Part shown: positions 26,062 to 32,425 of the stretch, one piece after another
Numbering within the stretch: the stretch's first letter is position 1
Layout: every line of letters starts with the position of its first letter
Assembly: GCA_025041175.1 (NCBI GenBank)
Contig: JAKCFJ010000001.1
Location: 2,311,526-2,375,525, forward strand
Source of the DNA: Halobacteriales archaeon YIM A00010
GTDB taxonomy: Archaea; Halobacteriota; Halobacteria; Halobacteriales; Haloarculaceae
Direction of reading: 5' to 3'
DNA: 64,000 nt
Translations under genes and position numbers: made by a program
Notes under the pieces: model-generated
Seen by the model: only the letters and a program-made list of their open reading frames with translations
Told to the model about the DNA's origin: nothing
Database searches by the model: none

Positions 26062-27591
26062 ATGACCGACACCGCGGATCTGATCGTCACCGACGCGGAG
26101 ATACACACGCTCACCGATCCCGACGAGACCCACGAGGCGCTCGCCGTCCGCGACGGCGAGATCGTCCGCATCGGGCGGGGCTACGAAATCGACTTCCTCG
26201 AAGGGATCGATACGAGCGTCGTCGATCTCGCGGGCGGCGTGCTCCTGCCCGGCTTCATCGACGCCCACACGCACATGGAGCAGTTCGGCCGCCGGCTCGT
26301 CCACGCCGACCTCTCCGACGCGAGTTCCATCGAGGAAGCCGTGGCGCTGTTGTGTGAGGAACGCGACCGCGAGCCGGAGGGGTGGGTGCTCGGATACGGC
26401 TACGACGAGAGCGCGTGGGGTGAGAACCGTCTGTTAAACCGCGATGATCTCGACCGCGTGAGCGAGGATCGCCCGGTCGTCGCGTTCCGCGAGGACCTCC
26501 ACACCGGGAGCCTCAACTCGGTCGCGCTCGGACGCCACGCGCCCGACATGCCCGACGACGACGTTCGACGTTCGGGGGGCAAACCGACGGGCGTCGTCGT
26601 GGAGGACGCGCTGGGTGTCGTCCGCCGCGAAACAGCTCCCGATGCCGAGCGCATGCGCGATCTCGTCACGGCGGCCCGCGATCGCGCCCACACGCTCGGT
26701 GTCACGGGGGTCCACGACATGGTGCGTCGGTCCACTGCTCCACGCGTCTACCGCGAACTCGACAGGGCCGGTGCGCTGGATCTCCGGGTGCGAATCAACT
26801 ACTGGAGCGATCACCTCGACGCGCTGTCGGAGCTTGGCGCCGTCACGAACCACGGCAGCGAGTTCGTCCGCGTCGGTGGCGTCAAAAGCTACACCGATGG
26901 GAGCTTTGGCGGCCGAACCGCGCAGCTCTCCGAACCGTACGAGAACGGAGAGACCGGCCAGTGGGTCACCGGTCCCGAACAGCTGCGCGAGATCGTCGCT
27001 CGCGCGGACGAGGCGGAACGCCAGTGCTGCGTCCACGCGATCGGGGACCGAGCCGTCGAGGCGGTGCTCGATACCTACGAGGCGACCGACGACCCCAGCG
27101 GGAGCCGCCACCGCGTGGAGCACGCCGAACTCCTTCCACGGTCGCTGCTCGAGCGGTTTGCCGACGCCGATGTCGTCGCCTCTGTTCAACCGAACTTCCT
27201 CAAATGGGCGCGCGAGGGCGGGCTGTACGAGGATCGCATCGGATGCGAGCGAACGCGACAGACCAACCGGTGCCGCACGCTTCTCGAGGCGGGGATTCCG
27301 CTGGCCTTTGGCAGCGACTGCATGCCGCTCGATCCGCTGTTCGGCATCGAGCAAACGGTCACTGCGCCCGCCGAAGAGCAACGACTCCCGGTCACCGAAG
27401 CGCTGCGGGCCTACACCGTCGGGGCGGCGTACGCCGGCTTCGACGAGCACCGCTTGGGTACCATCGAAACAGGCAAACGAGCCGACCTCGTCGCACTCGC
27501 CCGGTCACCGTGGGACGCGGCTCCCGACGCGATCGCCGACATCGGCGTGACCCACACGATCGTGGACGGACGAGTTGTCTACTCGTCGTGA
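26062..27591 (+). CDS. YtcJ-like metal-dependent amidohydrolase
   Basis: 509 residues from the ATG at 26062. LLPGFIDAHTHMEQFGRR carries the first metal-binding histidines; GGVKSYTDGSFGGRTAQLSE, CVHAIGDRAVEAVLDTYEAT, RVEHAELL, and LAFGSDCMPLDPLFGI supply the remaining site. GTIETGKRADLVAL closes the C-terminal composite domain. Substrate unknown. The last 13 bases overlap the convergent oapC gene. Confidence 0.9.
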   Translation: MTDTADLIVTDAEIHTLTDPDETHEALAVRDGEIVRIGRGYEIDFLEGIDTSVVDLAGGVLLPGFIDAHTHMEQFGRRLVHADLSDASSIEEAVALLCEERDREPEGWVLGYGYDESAWGENRLLNRDDLDRVSEDRPVVAFREDLHTGSLNSVALGRHAPDMPDDDVRRSGGKPTGVVVEDALGVVRRETAPDAERMRDLVTAARDRAHTLGVTGVHDMVRRSTAPRVYRELDRAGALDLRVRINYWSDHLDALSELGAVTNHGSEFVRVGGVKSYTDGSFGGRTAQLSEPYENGETGQWVTGPEQLREIVARADEAERQCCVHAIGDRAVEAVLDTYEATDDPSGSRHRVEHAELLPRSLLERFADADVVASVQPNFLKWAREGGLYEDRIGCERTRQTNRCRTLLEAGIPLAFGSDCMPLDPLFGIEQTVTAPAEEQRLPVTEALRAYTVGAAYAGFDEHRLGTIETGKRADLVALARSPWDAAPDAIADIGVTHTIVDGRVVYSS

Positions 27592-28265
27592 GAGATCCAC
27601 GTTTCGGGCATTTGGATGACGTAGTGGCCGTTCTCTTGGAGAGCGATGATATACTCCTCGCGGTCGTACAGCTCCATCAGATTGAGTTCGTACTGTCCGG
27701 GTTCGAGGATCTTGATCGACTCGAACTGATCGTTGAGCTCCGCTCGTAGCTCAGAGAGATCGGGCTGATCTCCGGTCGGCTCGCGGACGACGCGACCGTC
27801 ACTAGGGGGAGACGATCCGGCACGCGAGGATGACGACTCGGCCGGAGCATCGTCGGAAGGAGTGTGAGAGGGAAGCTGATCGGGAGCGACGAACTCGGAC
27901 CGAGCGGTCGCCTGGGCCGAATCCTCCTCATCGAAGGGATCCGGATCGGTGGAATCGAACACGTCGGCGTCTCGGTCCTCCTCGGAACGTTCCGATCGAT
28001 CAGTCTCATCGGGGACCGTGTCCGGCGAATCGGCCGACGAATCGCTCGACATGAATCCACGAACGATCGACGTTGCGCGGCCGACGTGCGTACCGACGCT
28101 CCCTTCGTTCGATTCCGGTGGCTCCTCGTCCGGAGGAACGTCGGAATCATCCACGCCGTCCGGTCGGAACTGAAACGTCGTTCCACCACACTCCGGACAG
28201 CCCGAAAGCATCTCCTTCGAGCCGTCTCCAAACACACAGCCGCAGTTGGTACACTGGTGTGGCAT
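27579..28265 (-). CDS. oapC: Origin-associated zinc-ribbon protein OapC
   Basis: 228 residues. The N-terminus MPHQCTNCGCVFGDGSKEML followed by SGCPECGG gives a four-cysteine zinc ribbon (C5, C8, C23, C26). A long acidic, Ser/Asp-rich linker follows. A compact C-terminal domain (FESIKILEPGQYELNLMELY, EEYIIALQENGHYVIQMP) ends the chain. In haloarchaea three origin-associated genes lie next to orc1 at oriC1; gene order here is oapA-oapB-oapC running away from the origin, supporting the name. Biochemical role unknown. Confidence 0.85.
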   Translation of the reverse strand: MPHQCTNCGCVFGDGSKEMLSGCPECGGTTFQFRPDGVDDSDVPPDEEPPESNEGSVGTHVGRATSIVRGFMSSDSSADSPDTVPDETDRSERSEEDRDADVFDSTDPDPFDEEDSAQATARSEFVAPDQLPSHTPSDDAPAESSSSRAGSSPPSDGRVVREPTGDQPDLSELRAELNDQFESIKILEPGQYELNLMELYDREEYIIALQENGHYVIQMPETWISHDE

Positions 28266-28279
28266 TAGCGCTCCGTTTC

Positions 28280-28654
28280 CTACTGTGTTACCAGGGCCTG
28301 AATCAAGTTTTCGTCCTTGTGGAGCGTCTCGATACGGTTGGCTGGACCGATAACTGTCAGTTTGTTCGGTGGATCGCGGCCGAAGAGCCGGCTGAAAAAG
28401 CCAGGTTTCGATTCCTGTTGTGGATAGCTCTCGATTTCGATGCCGGTGAACTCGTCGGGGCTGATCTCGTTCATCGTCACTTCGATGAGTTTCGATTCCT
28501 CGTCGGGCGAGAGACCTTCCTCGAGAATAACGATGTTTCCCTCGCGGACGCCATCGAGGATGAGCCGGATCTTTTCCATGCTGCGGAGGCTTTGCATCCG
28601 CTCGCGGCTAACGAGGTCGATCTGCACACCATCGTTCGTCGTTATGTCAGCCAT
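28280..28654 (-). CDS. oapB: Origin-associated protein OapB (DUF2073)
   Basis: 124 residues. DGVQIDLVSRERMQSLRSME, ILDGVREGNIVILEEGLSPD and IEIESYPQQ match the DUF2073 family that accompanies this GTPase. It lies 5 bp from oapA and 14 bp from oapC, forming an operon. Function unknown; probably works with OapA. Confidence 0.87.
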   Translation of the reverse strand: MADITTNDGVQIDLVSRERMQSLRSMEKIRLILDGVREGNIVILEEGLSPDEESKLIEVTMNEISPDEFTGIEIESYPQQESKPGFFSRLFGRDPPNKLTVIGPANRIETLHKDENLIQALVTQ

Positions 28655-28659
28655 CTAGT

Positions 28660-29928
28660 TCACCCGAAGTACTCCGCGATCTTGTTGTAGACCTCATCCA
28701 TGTTGTCTCCCTCGAGGGCAGACAACGGTACCACTTCGTGTTGTGGGAACGCGTTGACGATGCGCTGGATGCTCGAGTCGTCTAGATCGATCTTGTTTGC
28801 GAAGATCAATACCGGCAGATCCCGACTCTCAATGATTCCGACGAGCATCGTGTTGACCTGCGTGAACGGATCAGTCGTGCTATCGAGCACGTAGACAACG
28901 CCATCGACATCCTCACGGAGCCAGTGCATCGCTTCCGCAACGCCTTCGGTAGCCTCGCGCGAGCGGCGCACGGCGTCCTCTTTGGTCATGTCGTGTTCGA
29001 GGAACTCGTTGTAATCCACTTTTGTCGTCACACCCGGCGTATCGACGATGTCGATGGTAACGGACGATCCGTTGCGCTTGATCTCCACGTTCTCCTTTCG
29101 ACGGGCGCGACGGGTTTCGTGGGGAACGTGGCTCTCGGGTCCGACCGCGTCTCCCGTCCAATCGCGCGCAATGCGGTTTGCGAGCGTCGTGTTGTGAACG
29201 ACGAGACCGTCCGCGGTGGTGAACGTGTGGTGTTCGGGAACGGTGAGGTCGTAGATGGCACCGTCGTACTCCTCCACCTCGATCGAGACGACCGATTCCC
29301 ACGCGATGTCCTCGCTGGCGCTGTGGGTGGTTCCGATCGACGTGGGCGAAGCAGCTGTGGATGCGAGACAGCCACCGTCCGCCACGTACCGGTCGGTGGT
29401 GCCGTCCATCCCGGAGACGGACGACCGGAGACGGGGACCGGGAGGGGTGGGAGCAGAGGAGAGCCGAGCGACACGGCTCTCCACCGAAAGGGCGTCCGCC
29501 CGACGTTGGGCGACACCCCCATCCGAACGAACGATGAACGGGTGTTCGGGACTCACGACGACCGAGCTATCCGAACCAGTCCGAACGCGATACATCTCCC
29601 CCCGGTATCGCTGGCGAAACGCGTGCGAGACAGTGGCCGGAACGACCGTCAGATCCCCCGTCAGGGACGGAACACGGATATCTGCGTCCGAACACGCGAA
29701 CCACGTCTCGTGTGATGAACCGCTCACGTCGGGCGCATCCGGACACGCCTCACGCGCAGACGAATAGATCTCCTCGATCGGTCGGCGCGTGCCGTCCGAA
29801 AGCAGGATCTCCTCGTCTGCCGCGAGACACTTTCCCGCGTTTGGCGGCCCGTAGATTCCTATCCTCTTCGGTTCGCCCCCCGAAAACAGCCTTGAAATGC
29901 TGCCTTTGATGCTCGCTATCAGTCCCAT
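28660..29928 (-). CDS. oapA: Origin-associated GTPase OapA interrupted by an intein
   Basis: 422 residues as encoded. The host protein is an Era-like GTPase: GIYGPPNAGK (P-loop, residues 24-33), DIVDTPG (G3) and IFANKID (G4). The P-loop is broken after Lys33 by a 213-residue intein (residues 34-246), and host sequence resumes with TTLANRIARD. Only splicing would restore GPPNAGKTT and nucleotide binding; the spliced protein is 209 residues. It heads the oapABC operon beside oriC1. Confidence 0.93.
   Translation of the reverse strand: MGLIASIKGSISRLFSGGEPKRIGIYGPPNAGKCLAADEEILLSDGTRRPIEEIYSSAREACPDAPDVSGSSHETWFACSDADIRVPSLTGDLTVVPATVSHAFRQRYRGEMYRVRTGSDSSVVVSPEHPFIVRSDGGVAQRRADALSVESRVARLSSAPTPPGPRLRSSVSGMDGTTDRYVADGGCLASTAASPTSIGTTHSASEDIAWESVVSIEVEEYDGAIYDLTVPEHHTFTTADGLVVHNTTLANRIARDWTGDAVGPESHVPHETRRARRKENVEIKRNGSSVTIDIVDTPGVTTKVDYNEFLEHDMTKEDAVRRSREATEGVAEAMHWLREDVDGVVYVLDSTTDPFTQVNTMLVGIIESRDLPVLIFANKIDLDDSSIQRIVNAFPQHEVVPLSALEGDNMDEVYNKIAEYFG
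29191..29829 (-). other. Mini-intein in the OapA P-loop
   Basis: 213 residues from Cys34 (CLAADEEILLSDGTRRPIEE, block A) to His245-Asn246 (block G, ADGLVVHN), with Thr247 as the downstream nucleophile. Block B is VVSPEHPFIV with its conserved His129; block F is YDGAIYDLTVPEHHTFTT. Between B and F there are only about 85 residues and no LAGLIDADG motif, so the homing endonuclease is lost. The ends fall exactly between codons of the conserved GKT motif. Confidence 0.93.
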
Positions 29929-30234
29929 CCTAACGCGCTCCTCCCACGGCCGACGGCCGCGTATACCCGCAATTCCCCATCCGACGTACTTAAGCGTGCG
30001 TCAGACAACCATATCTTTGTTTTGGTATTGTTTTTGCTACATCTCATACGGATATATTTCAATTAACACCAGGTTCATTAACTTGAGAGGCTTGCGATGC
30101 TCAAGCGGAGGCGGTCCTCCAACGACCCTACGAGGACTACTTTGAATGTCTATTGGATATACACCCAACACGTGTATACAACCCGTGTATATGATAAAAT
30201 ATGATTCTATCCAAACACTATCGAGAGTTCCTAA

Positions 30235-30263
30235 CCCCCCATCCCCTTCGTTTCAACTGGAAC
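30235..30263 (-). promoter_or_regulatory. Origin recognition box 1
   Basis: Minus strand GTTCCAGTTGAAACGAAGGG extending into a G-run. It is a perfect 29-bp inverted copy of 30557-30585 and contains the haloarchaeal Orc1-binding core TTCCA-TTGAAAC-GGGG. Confidence 0.88.
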
Positions 30264-30556
30264 CCGATACAAAGGGAGTGGGGGATCTAGCGATCTCTCG
30301 TAGACACTATAATAAGGAAAGTTTTAATAGGGTAGAATGAGAACGGCAACTATAGTACAGAAAAGAGAATCTATTGTTTTGTTTTTTGTTTTCCTAGCTT
30401 CTTTCTAGCTTGTTTGTTTGGTAGTATACCGATCTAGTTCTAGTTCACTCTGTTATATAATCTATCCTATATATCTTATAGGAAAATAATTATATAATAT
30501 TTATACATTGTAGTTATTTTGGTGGGTCCTCGTGGGGGGTGGGGGGTCCTTTCGGG

Positions 30557-30585
30557 GTTCCAGTTGAAACGAAGGGGATGGGGGG
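30557..30585 (+). promoter_or_regulatory. Origin recognition box 2
   Basis: Perfect inverted partner of 30235-30263; the two face each other's outside and enclose the AT-rich unwinding segment. An additional G-rich stretch (30533-30546) precedes it. Confidence 0.88.
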
Positions 30586-30792
30586 TTGCCGTGGTACGTC
30601 CTGTTTCGGCTACCAATCAGTACTCGATCATACGATCGACATCACCTGGTTATACAATCAATACGCCATTATATCCCAATGTATCTTGACGAGTTCTCCA
30701 TACAGCCTCATGCATCAGTTACTGAATGATAACATATATCATCCTGTACCACACGAGATCTCCCGTTCGAACCGCAACGTTTAATGGGAATC

Positions 30793-30931: not shown

Positions 30932-32425
30932 ATGACCGACACAAACAGGGATGGAGATTCGGACACCATATTCGACGAAGAGCCAGTCGAAGCTGACGGT
31001 CAGAACACGTTATTCGATGGACTTCCAGGAGAAGAGGAGTCCTCTCGGGGGTTGTTCGACGATCTCCTCAGTAGCGAGCCGATTTTCGAGAACAAAGAGG
31101 TCCTCCGGCCGTCGTACACCCCTCGTCGTCTGCCCCACCGCGAGGAGCAGATCAACAATATGGCCACGATTCTCGTAACGGCCCTCCGCGGTGACACGCC
31201 CTCGAACATACTCATCTACGGGAAAACGGGCACTGGAAAGACAGCATCCGCGAAGTTCGTCAGCGAAGAGCTCGAAAGCACGTCCGAGAAGTACGAGGTT
31301 CCGTGTGAAGTGCAGTACATCAACTGCGAGGTCACGGACACCCAGTATCGCGTCCTCGCCCAGCTCGCGAACACGTTCATCGACGAGAACGAGCGGTACA
31401 TCGACGAGCGGCTGTCCGCGCTGAACGATCTCAGGGCGCGCGCGGACGAGTCGGCGTCCGCGCTTTCGGAGACGGCGTTCGAGTCGATCGGGGGGATCGA
31501 CGACCGGATCGAGACGTTGGAAGACGACCGCGAACAGTTCGAATCCGTTCCGATGACGGGATGGCCGACCGACCGGGTGTACTCCACGTTTTTCGACGCC
31601 GTCGAATACGCCGAGCGCGTCGTGGTCATCATGCTCGACGAGATCGACAAGCTCGTCGAAAAAAGCGGCGATGACACGCTGTACAACCTATCGCGGATGA
31701 ACTCCGAACTCGAAAACTCGCGCGTCTCCATCATCGGCATCTCGAACGACCTGAAGTTCACGGACTTTCTCGATCCGCGAGTCAAATCGAGCCTCGGCGA
31801 GGAGGAGATCGTCTTCCCACCCTACGACGCGACACAGCTCAAAGACATCCTCCAACACCGGTCGGAAGTGGCGTTCAAGTCGGGGGCGCTTTCGGACGAC
31901 GTGATCCCGTTGTGCGCGGCTTTTGCGGCCCAAGAGCACGGCGATGCCCGGCGCGCGCTCGATCTCCTTCGGACCGCGGGGGAGCTCGCGGAACGCGATC
32001 GGACGGACTTCATCGAGGAAGATCACGTCCGACAAGCACAGGAAAAGATCGAACTCGACCGCGTGGTCGAAGTCGTCAGAACGCTCCCCACACAATCGAA
32101 GCTGGTTCTGTACGCCATCATCCTCCTCGAACGCCACGGCGTTCGCAACATCAACACCGGCGAAGTGTTCAACATTTACAAACAACTCTGCACCGAGATC
32201 GGCGTGGACGTGTTGACACAGCGCCGCGTCACCGACCTCATCAGCGAGCTGGACATGCTCGGGATCGTGAACGCCGTCGTGGTCAGCAAAGGGCGGTACG
32301 GACGGACCAAGGAGATGAGCCTCTCCGTTCCCCTCGAAGACACCGAAACGATCCTGTTGAGCGATTCCCGCCTCGCAGACGTAGAAGAAGCACAGCCCTT
32401 CGTTCAAGCCCGGTTCGACGAATAA
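30932..32425 (+). CDS. orc1: Orc1/Cdc6 replication initiator
   Basis: 497 residues. An acidic N-terminus is followed by LRPSYTPRRLPHREEQINNM, Walker A NILIYGKTGTGKTASAKFVS, Walker B VVIMLDEIDKL, sensor ISIIGISNDLKF-type segment and sensor 2 (GDARRALDLLRTAG). The C-terminal winged helix (RRVTDLISELDMLGIVNAVV) binds origin boxes. An insertion of about 60 residues (from LSALNDLRARADESASALSE) lies between Walker A and B, as in haloarchaeal Orc1. It is adjacent to oriC1 and divergent from oapABC. Confidence 0.96.
   Translation: MTDTNRDGDSDTIFDEEPVEADGQNTLFDGLPGEEESSRGLFDDLLSSEPIFENKEVLRPSYTPRRLPHREEQINNMATILVTALRGDTPSNILIYGKTGTGKTASAKFVSEELESTSEKYEVPCEVQYINCEVTDTQYRVLAQLANTFIDENERYIDERLSALNDLRARADESASALSETAFESIGGIDDRIETLEDDREQFESVPMTGWPTDRVYSTFFDAVEYAERVVVIMLDEIDKLVEKSGDDTLYNLSRMNSELENSRVSIIGISNDLKFTDFLDPRVKSSLGEEEIVFPPYDATQLKDILQHRSEVAFKSGALSDDVIPLCAAFAAQEHGDARRALDLLRTAGELAERDRTDFIEEDHVRQAQEKIELDRVVEVVRTLPTQSKLVLYAIILLERHGVRNINTGEVFNIYKQLCTEIGVDVLTQRRVTDLISELDMLGIVNAVVVSKGRYGRTKEMSLSVPLEDTETILLSDSRLADVEEAQPFVQARFDE

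What the first reader, a model, noticed from the sequence alone, without database searches (positions are those of the whole stretch)
28660..29928. Mini-intein splitting the P-loop of the origin-associated GTPase OapA
A 213-residue intein (blocks A, B, F, G all visible; Cys1, block B His129, His-Asn end, Thr+1) interrupts GPPNAGK^TT, the GTP-binding loop, of a gene beside oriC1. The insertion makes GTPase activity strictly dependent on splicing, and the endonuclease is already lost. Inteins favour such active-site motifs in replication-linked proteins; I do not recall one reported in OapA.
Basis: partly seen in the sequence, partly recalled or inferred. Interest (0 to 1): 0.85.

Follow-up and report, generated by a model that had tools for sequence, protein, structure and literature searches.

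The report
Self-splicing intein inside archaeal vesicle GTPase
A self-removing protein segment (an intein) sits in the middle of the nucleotide-binding loop of OapA/ArvA, the small GTPase that haloarchaea use to make extracellular vesicles, so the GTPase should work only after the segment has cut itself out; inteins are well known, but this host protein appears not to have been described as one.

Summary
The minus-strand gene at 28660-29928 encodes a 422-residue precursor: a 33-residue N-extein ending GPPNAGK, a 213-residue intein (29191-29829) and a C-extein starting TTL. Pfam, NCBIfam, PDB sequence and fold comparisons identify a class-1 splicing domain. All catalytic residues are invariant in 17 homologous inteins. 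OapA is in 390 of 391 haloarchaeal genomes sampled; 15 carry an intein at exactly this site, including every genome of the window's genus (Halocatena, not Halococcus). Empty sites read GPPNAGK-TTL without a break. Nine relatives are full-length (466-482 aa) with a LAGLIDADG endonuclease, one keeps only an endonuclease tail (275 aa), seven (the window's among them) are mini-inteins (183-213 aa). They form one clade, apart from MCM-a, MCM-d, rpolA and rir1 inteins: a new allele of a known kind, at the same Walker-A lysine as MCM-a. No paper found describes it. The replication framing needs correcting: OapA is ArvA, shown in Haloferax volcanii to drive extracellular-vesicle formation. That GTPase activity depends on splicing is inferred, not shown; control by salt or redox is untested.

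The parts
28660..29928 (-). oapA/arvA precursor gene, 422 aa
   Evidence: ORF; Pfam Intein_splicing and MMR_HSR1
29830..29928 (-). N-extein, 33 aa, ends in the Walker-A stretch GPPNAGK
   Evidence: Alignment with empty homologues
29191..29829 (-). Mini-intein, 213 aa (Cys1 to His-Asn), no endonuclease
28660..29190 (-). C-extein, 176 aa and stop codon, starts TTLANRI; rest of the GTPase
28280..28654 (-). oapB/arvB
   Evidence: PF09846 OapB 5.8e-42
27579..28265 (-). oapC/arvC, zinc-ribbon protein
   Evidence: PF09845 OapC 3.9e-26
30233..30587 (.). Putative origin: 33-nt perfect inverted arms 30233-30265 and 30555-30587 around AT-rich DNA (GC down to 0.35)
30932..32425 (+). orc1/cdc6 initiator gene
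   Evidence: Cdc6_C 7.8e-33, NF001625 1.7e-195

Best explanation
A class-1 cis-splicing intein occupies OapA/ArvA between the Walker-A lysine and the following threonine (GPPNAGK^TT). It is a reduced descendant of a haloarchaeal homing-type intein specific to this site: full-length versions carry a LAGLIDADG endonuclease, which has been lost here. The precursor most likely cannot bind GTP because its P-loop is split. By the standard class-1 route (Cys1 acyl shift, transfer to Thr+1, Asn213 cyclisation, ligation) the normal 209-residue vesicle GTPase is made. Shown here: anatomy, homology, exact site, empty sites, single clade, endonuclease loss, purifying selection. Inferred: that splicing occurs, and that it is needed for GTP binding and vesicle formation.
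For: Family models. Best PDB sequence matches are CDC21-1, KlbA, VMA and RadA inteins; best fold matches are PabCDC21-1 3.6e-14, PhoCDC21-1 and TvoVMA 1.5e-12. 17 homologues share Cys1, SPxH, block F Asp and His, His-Asn and +1 Thr. LAGLIDADG_3 in full-length relatives, 3.1e-20 and 4.3e-25; endonuclease-tail remnant in H. marina. Empty sites are seamless. OapA-intein clade support 98/98. Intein dN/dS 0.12-0.26 among Halocatena pairs, open frames with no internal stop. All genomes of the genus carry it.
Against: No splicing, GTP-binding or vesicle data exist for these proteins. The precursor model is confident only over the intein (mean pLDDT 57.9), so it does not show how the GTPase halves sit around it.
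Confidence: 0.95

Rival explanations
1. The intein is a domesticated switch: splicing is conditional (salt, redox or temperature) and sets how much active vesicle GTPase is made.
For: The intein is kept in all genomes of the genus after endonuclease loss and is under purifying selection. Conditional splicing is reported for other P-loop and halophile inteins (PMC5790916 text and references). Cys29 and Cys46 are shared by the six distinct Halocatena inteins.
Against: Retention and purifying selection are expected for any intein in a useful gene, because exact deletion is rare and splicing must be kept. No condition was tested.
Confidence: 0.1
2. Splicing is lost, and the GTPase is inactive or works as the unspliced precursor.
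For: No protein data are available.
Against: All splicing residues are intact in 17 of 17 and dN/dS is well below 1; the extein is strongly conserved (dN/dS 0.01-0.05) and only one OapA match lies in this genome.
Confidence: 0.03
3. The segment is an ordinary extra domain of OapA rather than an intein.
For: It is present in every Halocatena examined.
Against: It splits the P-loop, matches intein models, and is absent from nearly all OapA proteins with seamless joins.
Confidence: 0.01

Closest known systems
MCM-a (CDC21-1) intein of haloarchaea and Thermococcales
   Same: CDC21-1 inteins are the closest PDB structures by sequence and fold; the MCM-a inteins read here sit directly after the Walker-A lysine, and the best non-OapA haloarchaeal matches are MCM-a; the endonucleases are related. 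PMC10643990 places MCM-a after the Walker-A lysine.
   Different: The host is an ATPase helicase, +1 is Ser, and it is a separate clade (97/95 against 98/98). The consensus target DNA shares about 24 of 51 bases.
rpolA (RNA polymerase A'') intein
   Same: Joined with the OapA clade at 95/93 in the splicing-domain tree; related endonuclease half in other archaea.
   Different: Ser1 instead of Cys1, another host and site; the tree tool warns that this join is between long branches.
Pyrococcus horikoshii RadA and archaeal VMA P-loop inteins
   Same: Inteins in a nucleotide-binding loop (PMC5790916 and PMC10643990); fold matches 2.9e-12 (PhoRadA) and 1.5e-12 (TvoVMA).
   Different: The hosts are ATPases; identity is only about 20%.
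ArvA (OapA, HVO_3014) of Haloferax volcanii
   Same: Orthologous host protein with arvB and arvC in the same operon; the knockout cuts vesicle yield and overexpression raises it (PMC10927574).
   Different: The word intein does not occur in the main text of that paper.

Membership tests
Class-1 intein | Nucleophile (Cys or Ser) at position 1 | tested here: met
   Cys1 in all 17
Class-1 intein | Block B T/S-x-x-H | tested here: met
   SPxH in all 17
Class-1 intein | C-terminal His-Asn and Cys/Ser/Thr at +1 | tested here: met
   HN followed by Thr in all
Class-1 intein | Hint (splicing) fold | tested here: met
   Foldseek top matches are inteins; most of the intein is modelled confidently, its linker is not
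Class-1 intein | Homologues lack the insert and have an intact host protein | tested here: met
   Empty sites of 35 genomes read directly; survey
Class-1 intein | Protein splicing observed | not testable with these tools
   Needs expression or mass spectrometry
Mini-intein | No homing endonuclease domain | tested here: met
   213 aa with no LAGLIDADG match, while relatives have one
ArvA/OapA GTPase | Small GTPase with OapB and OapC genes next to it | tested here: met
   PF01926 9.6e-7, PF09846 5.8e-42, PF09845 3.9e-26
ArvA/OapA GTPase | Required for vesicle formation | not testable with these tools
   Shown in H. volcanii only (PMC10927574)
MCM-a intein allele | Inserted in MCM and grouping with MCM-a inteins | tested here: not met
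   Other host; separate, supported clade

The most novel reading that the evidence does not exclude
Splicing of the OapA/ArvA intein is a post-translational switch for extracellular-vesicle formation in Halocatena, answering to salt or redox.
Probability: 0.1. Interest if true: 0.8.

Novelty: new member of a known kind. Interest (0 to 1): 0.5.

Why it matters
Over 70% of inteins sit in ATP-binding proteins (PMC5790916). This one sits in a small GTPase, at the corresponding Walker-A position, in the protein that drives archaeal vesicle formation. It adds a host protein and an intein allele with a ladder of full, partly decayed and minimal forms, useful for studying how endonucleases are lost. 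It also offers a direct test of whether an intein can gate vesiculation.

Tried and rejected
Viral carriers: one viral-contig scan with the full-length alignment gave only two 23%-identity relatives, so no vector was found. OapA inteins outside haloarchaea: none seen, by the exact GPPNAGKC pattern or by the intein profile, in 393 genomes of the phylum; the best outside match examined is an rpolA intein. The pattern assumes an identical P-loop, and few candidates per genome were scored, so rare cases may be missed. Origin by a jump from MCM-a: suggested by sequence similarity, but the tree joins OapA with rpolA instead and flags long branches, so the source is left open. Number of endonuclease losses: the tree needs at least two changes of state, but a single clade of endonuclease-less inteins is not rejected (p-AU 0.25). 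The first script for the small tree failed on overlapping groups and was rerun. A second structure job, the intein alone, had not finished when the report was written.

Full report
Observation. The minus-strand ORF 29928-28660 encodes 422 aa. Pfam finds Intein_splicing (6.4e-20, residues 42-246) followed by MMR_HSR1 GTPase (9.6e-7); NCBIfam finds intein_Nterm (5.9e-13) and intein_Cterm (3.9e-7). The intein is residues 34-246, window 29191-29829, 213 aa, between GPPNAGK and TTL. His129 of the precursor is intein His96 of block B.

Surroundings. oapB (28280-28654) and oapC (27579-28265) follow on the same strand. Between oapA and the orc1/cdc6 gene (30932-32425, plus strand) lies an AT-rich stretch with perfect 33-nt inverted arms at 30233-30265 and 30555-30587, as expected of an origin. 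Calling it oriC1 is reasonable, but origin activity was not tested.

Host protein. OapA is ArvA. In H. volcanii the knockout made about 2.9-fold fewer vesicles and overexpression caused hypervesiculation; arvB and arvC in the same operon also affect vesicle yield; an earlier mutant study had assigned no distinct function to it (PMC10927574). In this genome the function is inferred from orthology.

Relatives at the same site. In a sample of 391 haloarchaeal genomes, 390 have OapA. The intein query finds 15 with an intein at this position (sites read). Genomes with weak OapA scores were checked: none of them other than the already counted G129 has an intein, and one is split over two frames. A named scan adds Halomarina halobia and identifies two genomes of the genus as Halocatena pleomorpha and H. 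marina. The site was found in 7 of 7 genomes of the genus and an intein was read in each; G703 and G277 have the same sequence here, so there are six distinct inteins. Other genera with an invaded genome (g4, g9, g10, g30, g38, g82) also contain members without the intein. This patchiness fits gain and loss of a mobile element.

Reduction. Of 17 distinct inteins, nine are 466-482 aa with a LAGLIDADG core, the H. marina one (275 aa) keeps only the tail that follows the core, and seven are 183-213 aa. The putative catalytic acidic position of each of the two endonuclease motifs is Glu in all nine full-length inteins (read from the alignment). Endonuclease activity is not shown.

Splicing competence. 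Cys1, SPxH, block F Asp and His, His-Asn and +1 Thr are invariant. Intein dN/dS is 0.12-0.26 in Halocatena pairs, against 0.01-0.05 for the extein; some synonymous distances are near saturation. The structure model is confident over most of the intein, and its best solved matches are P-loop inteins: PabCDC21-1, PhoCDC21-1, TvoVMA and PhoRadA.

Place among inteins. OapA inteins form one clade (98/98) apart from MCM-a, MCM-d, rpolA and rir1. By sequence the nearest haloarchaeal inteins are MCM-a, which sits at the same Walker-A position, yet the tree joins OapA with rpolA on long branches. The source is open. The window's own mcm gene has an empty MCM-a site and an MCM-d intein.

Novelty. The 2014 haloarchaeal survey lists 24 alleles in 13 genes; the passages read name no GTPase, and the terms GTP and GTPase do not occur in it (PMC4071816). 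Searches for intein together with OapA, ArvA, GTP-binding protein or Halocatena found no paper that describes it. The library is open-access only and supplements were not read, so a listing elsewhere is possible.

Verdict. A real and probably active intein: a new allele of a known kind in a notable host. The idea that it regulates the host is testable but unsupported.

Noticed in passing
L022:3100-3924 (H. marina OapA intein): 275-aa intein that lost the LAGLIDADG core but keeps the tail that follows it: an intermediate in endonuclease loss.
   Followed up: partly
L098 (G000:C1 near 1302607): The window's genome carries an MCM-d mini-intein (179 aa) while its MCM-a Walker-A site is empty.
   Followed up: partly
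G000:C1:2197988-2199073: Another intein match in a 1429-aa frame of the same genome, outside the window; host not identified.
   Followed up: no
L125 and L127 (G333): OapA of one genome is split over two reading frames, a frameshift or a sequencing error.
   Followed up: no
window 29191-29829 and Halocatena relatives: Cys29 and Cys46 of the intein are shared by all six distinct Halocatena inteins; most other OapA inteins lack Cys29.
   Followed up: no
G277 and G703: Two held genomes have a contig of identical length (3,915,224 bases) with the same OapA position, so they may be assemblies of one strain.
   Followed up: no
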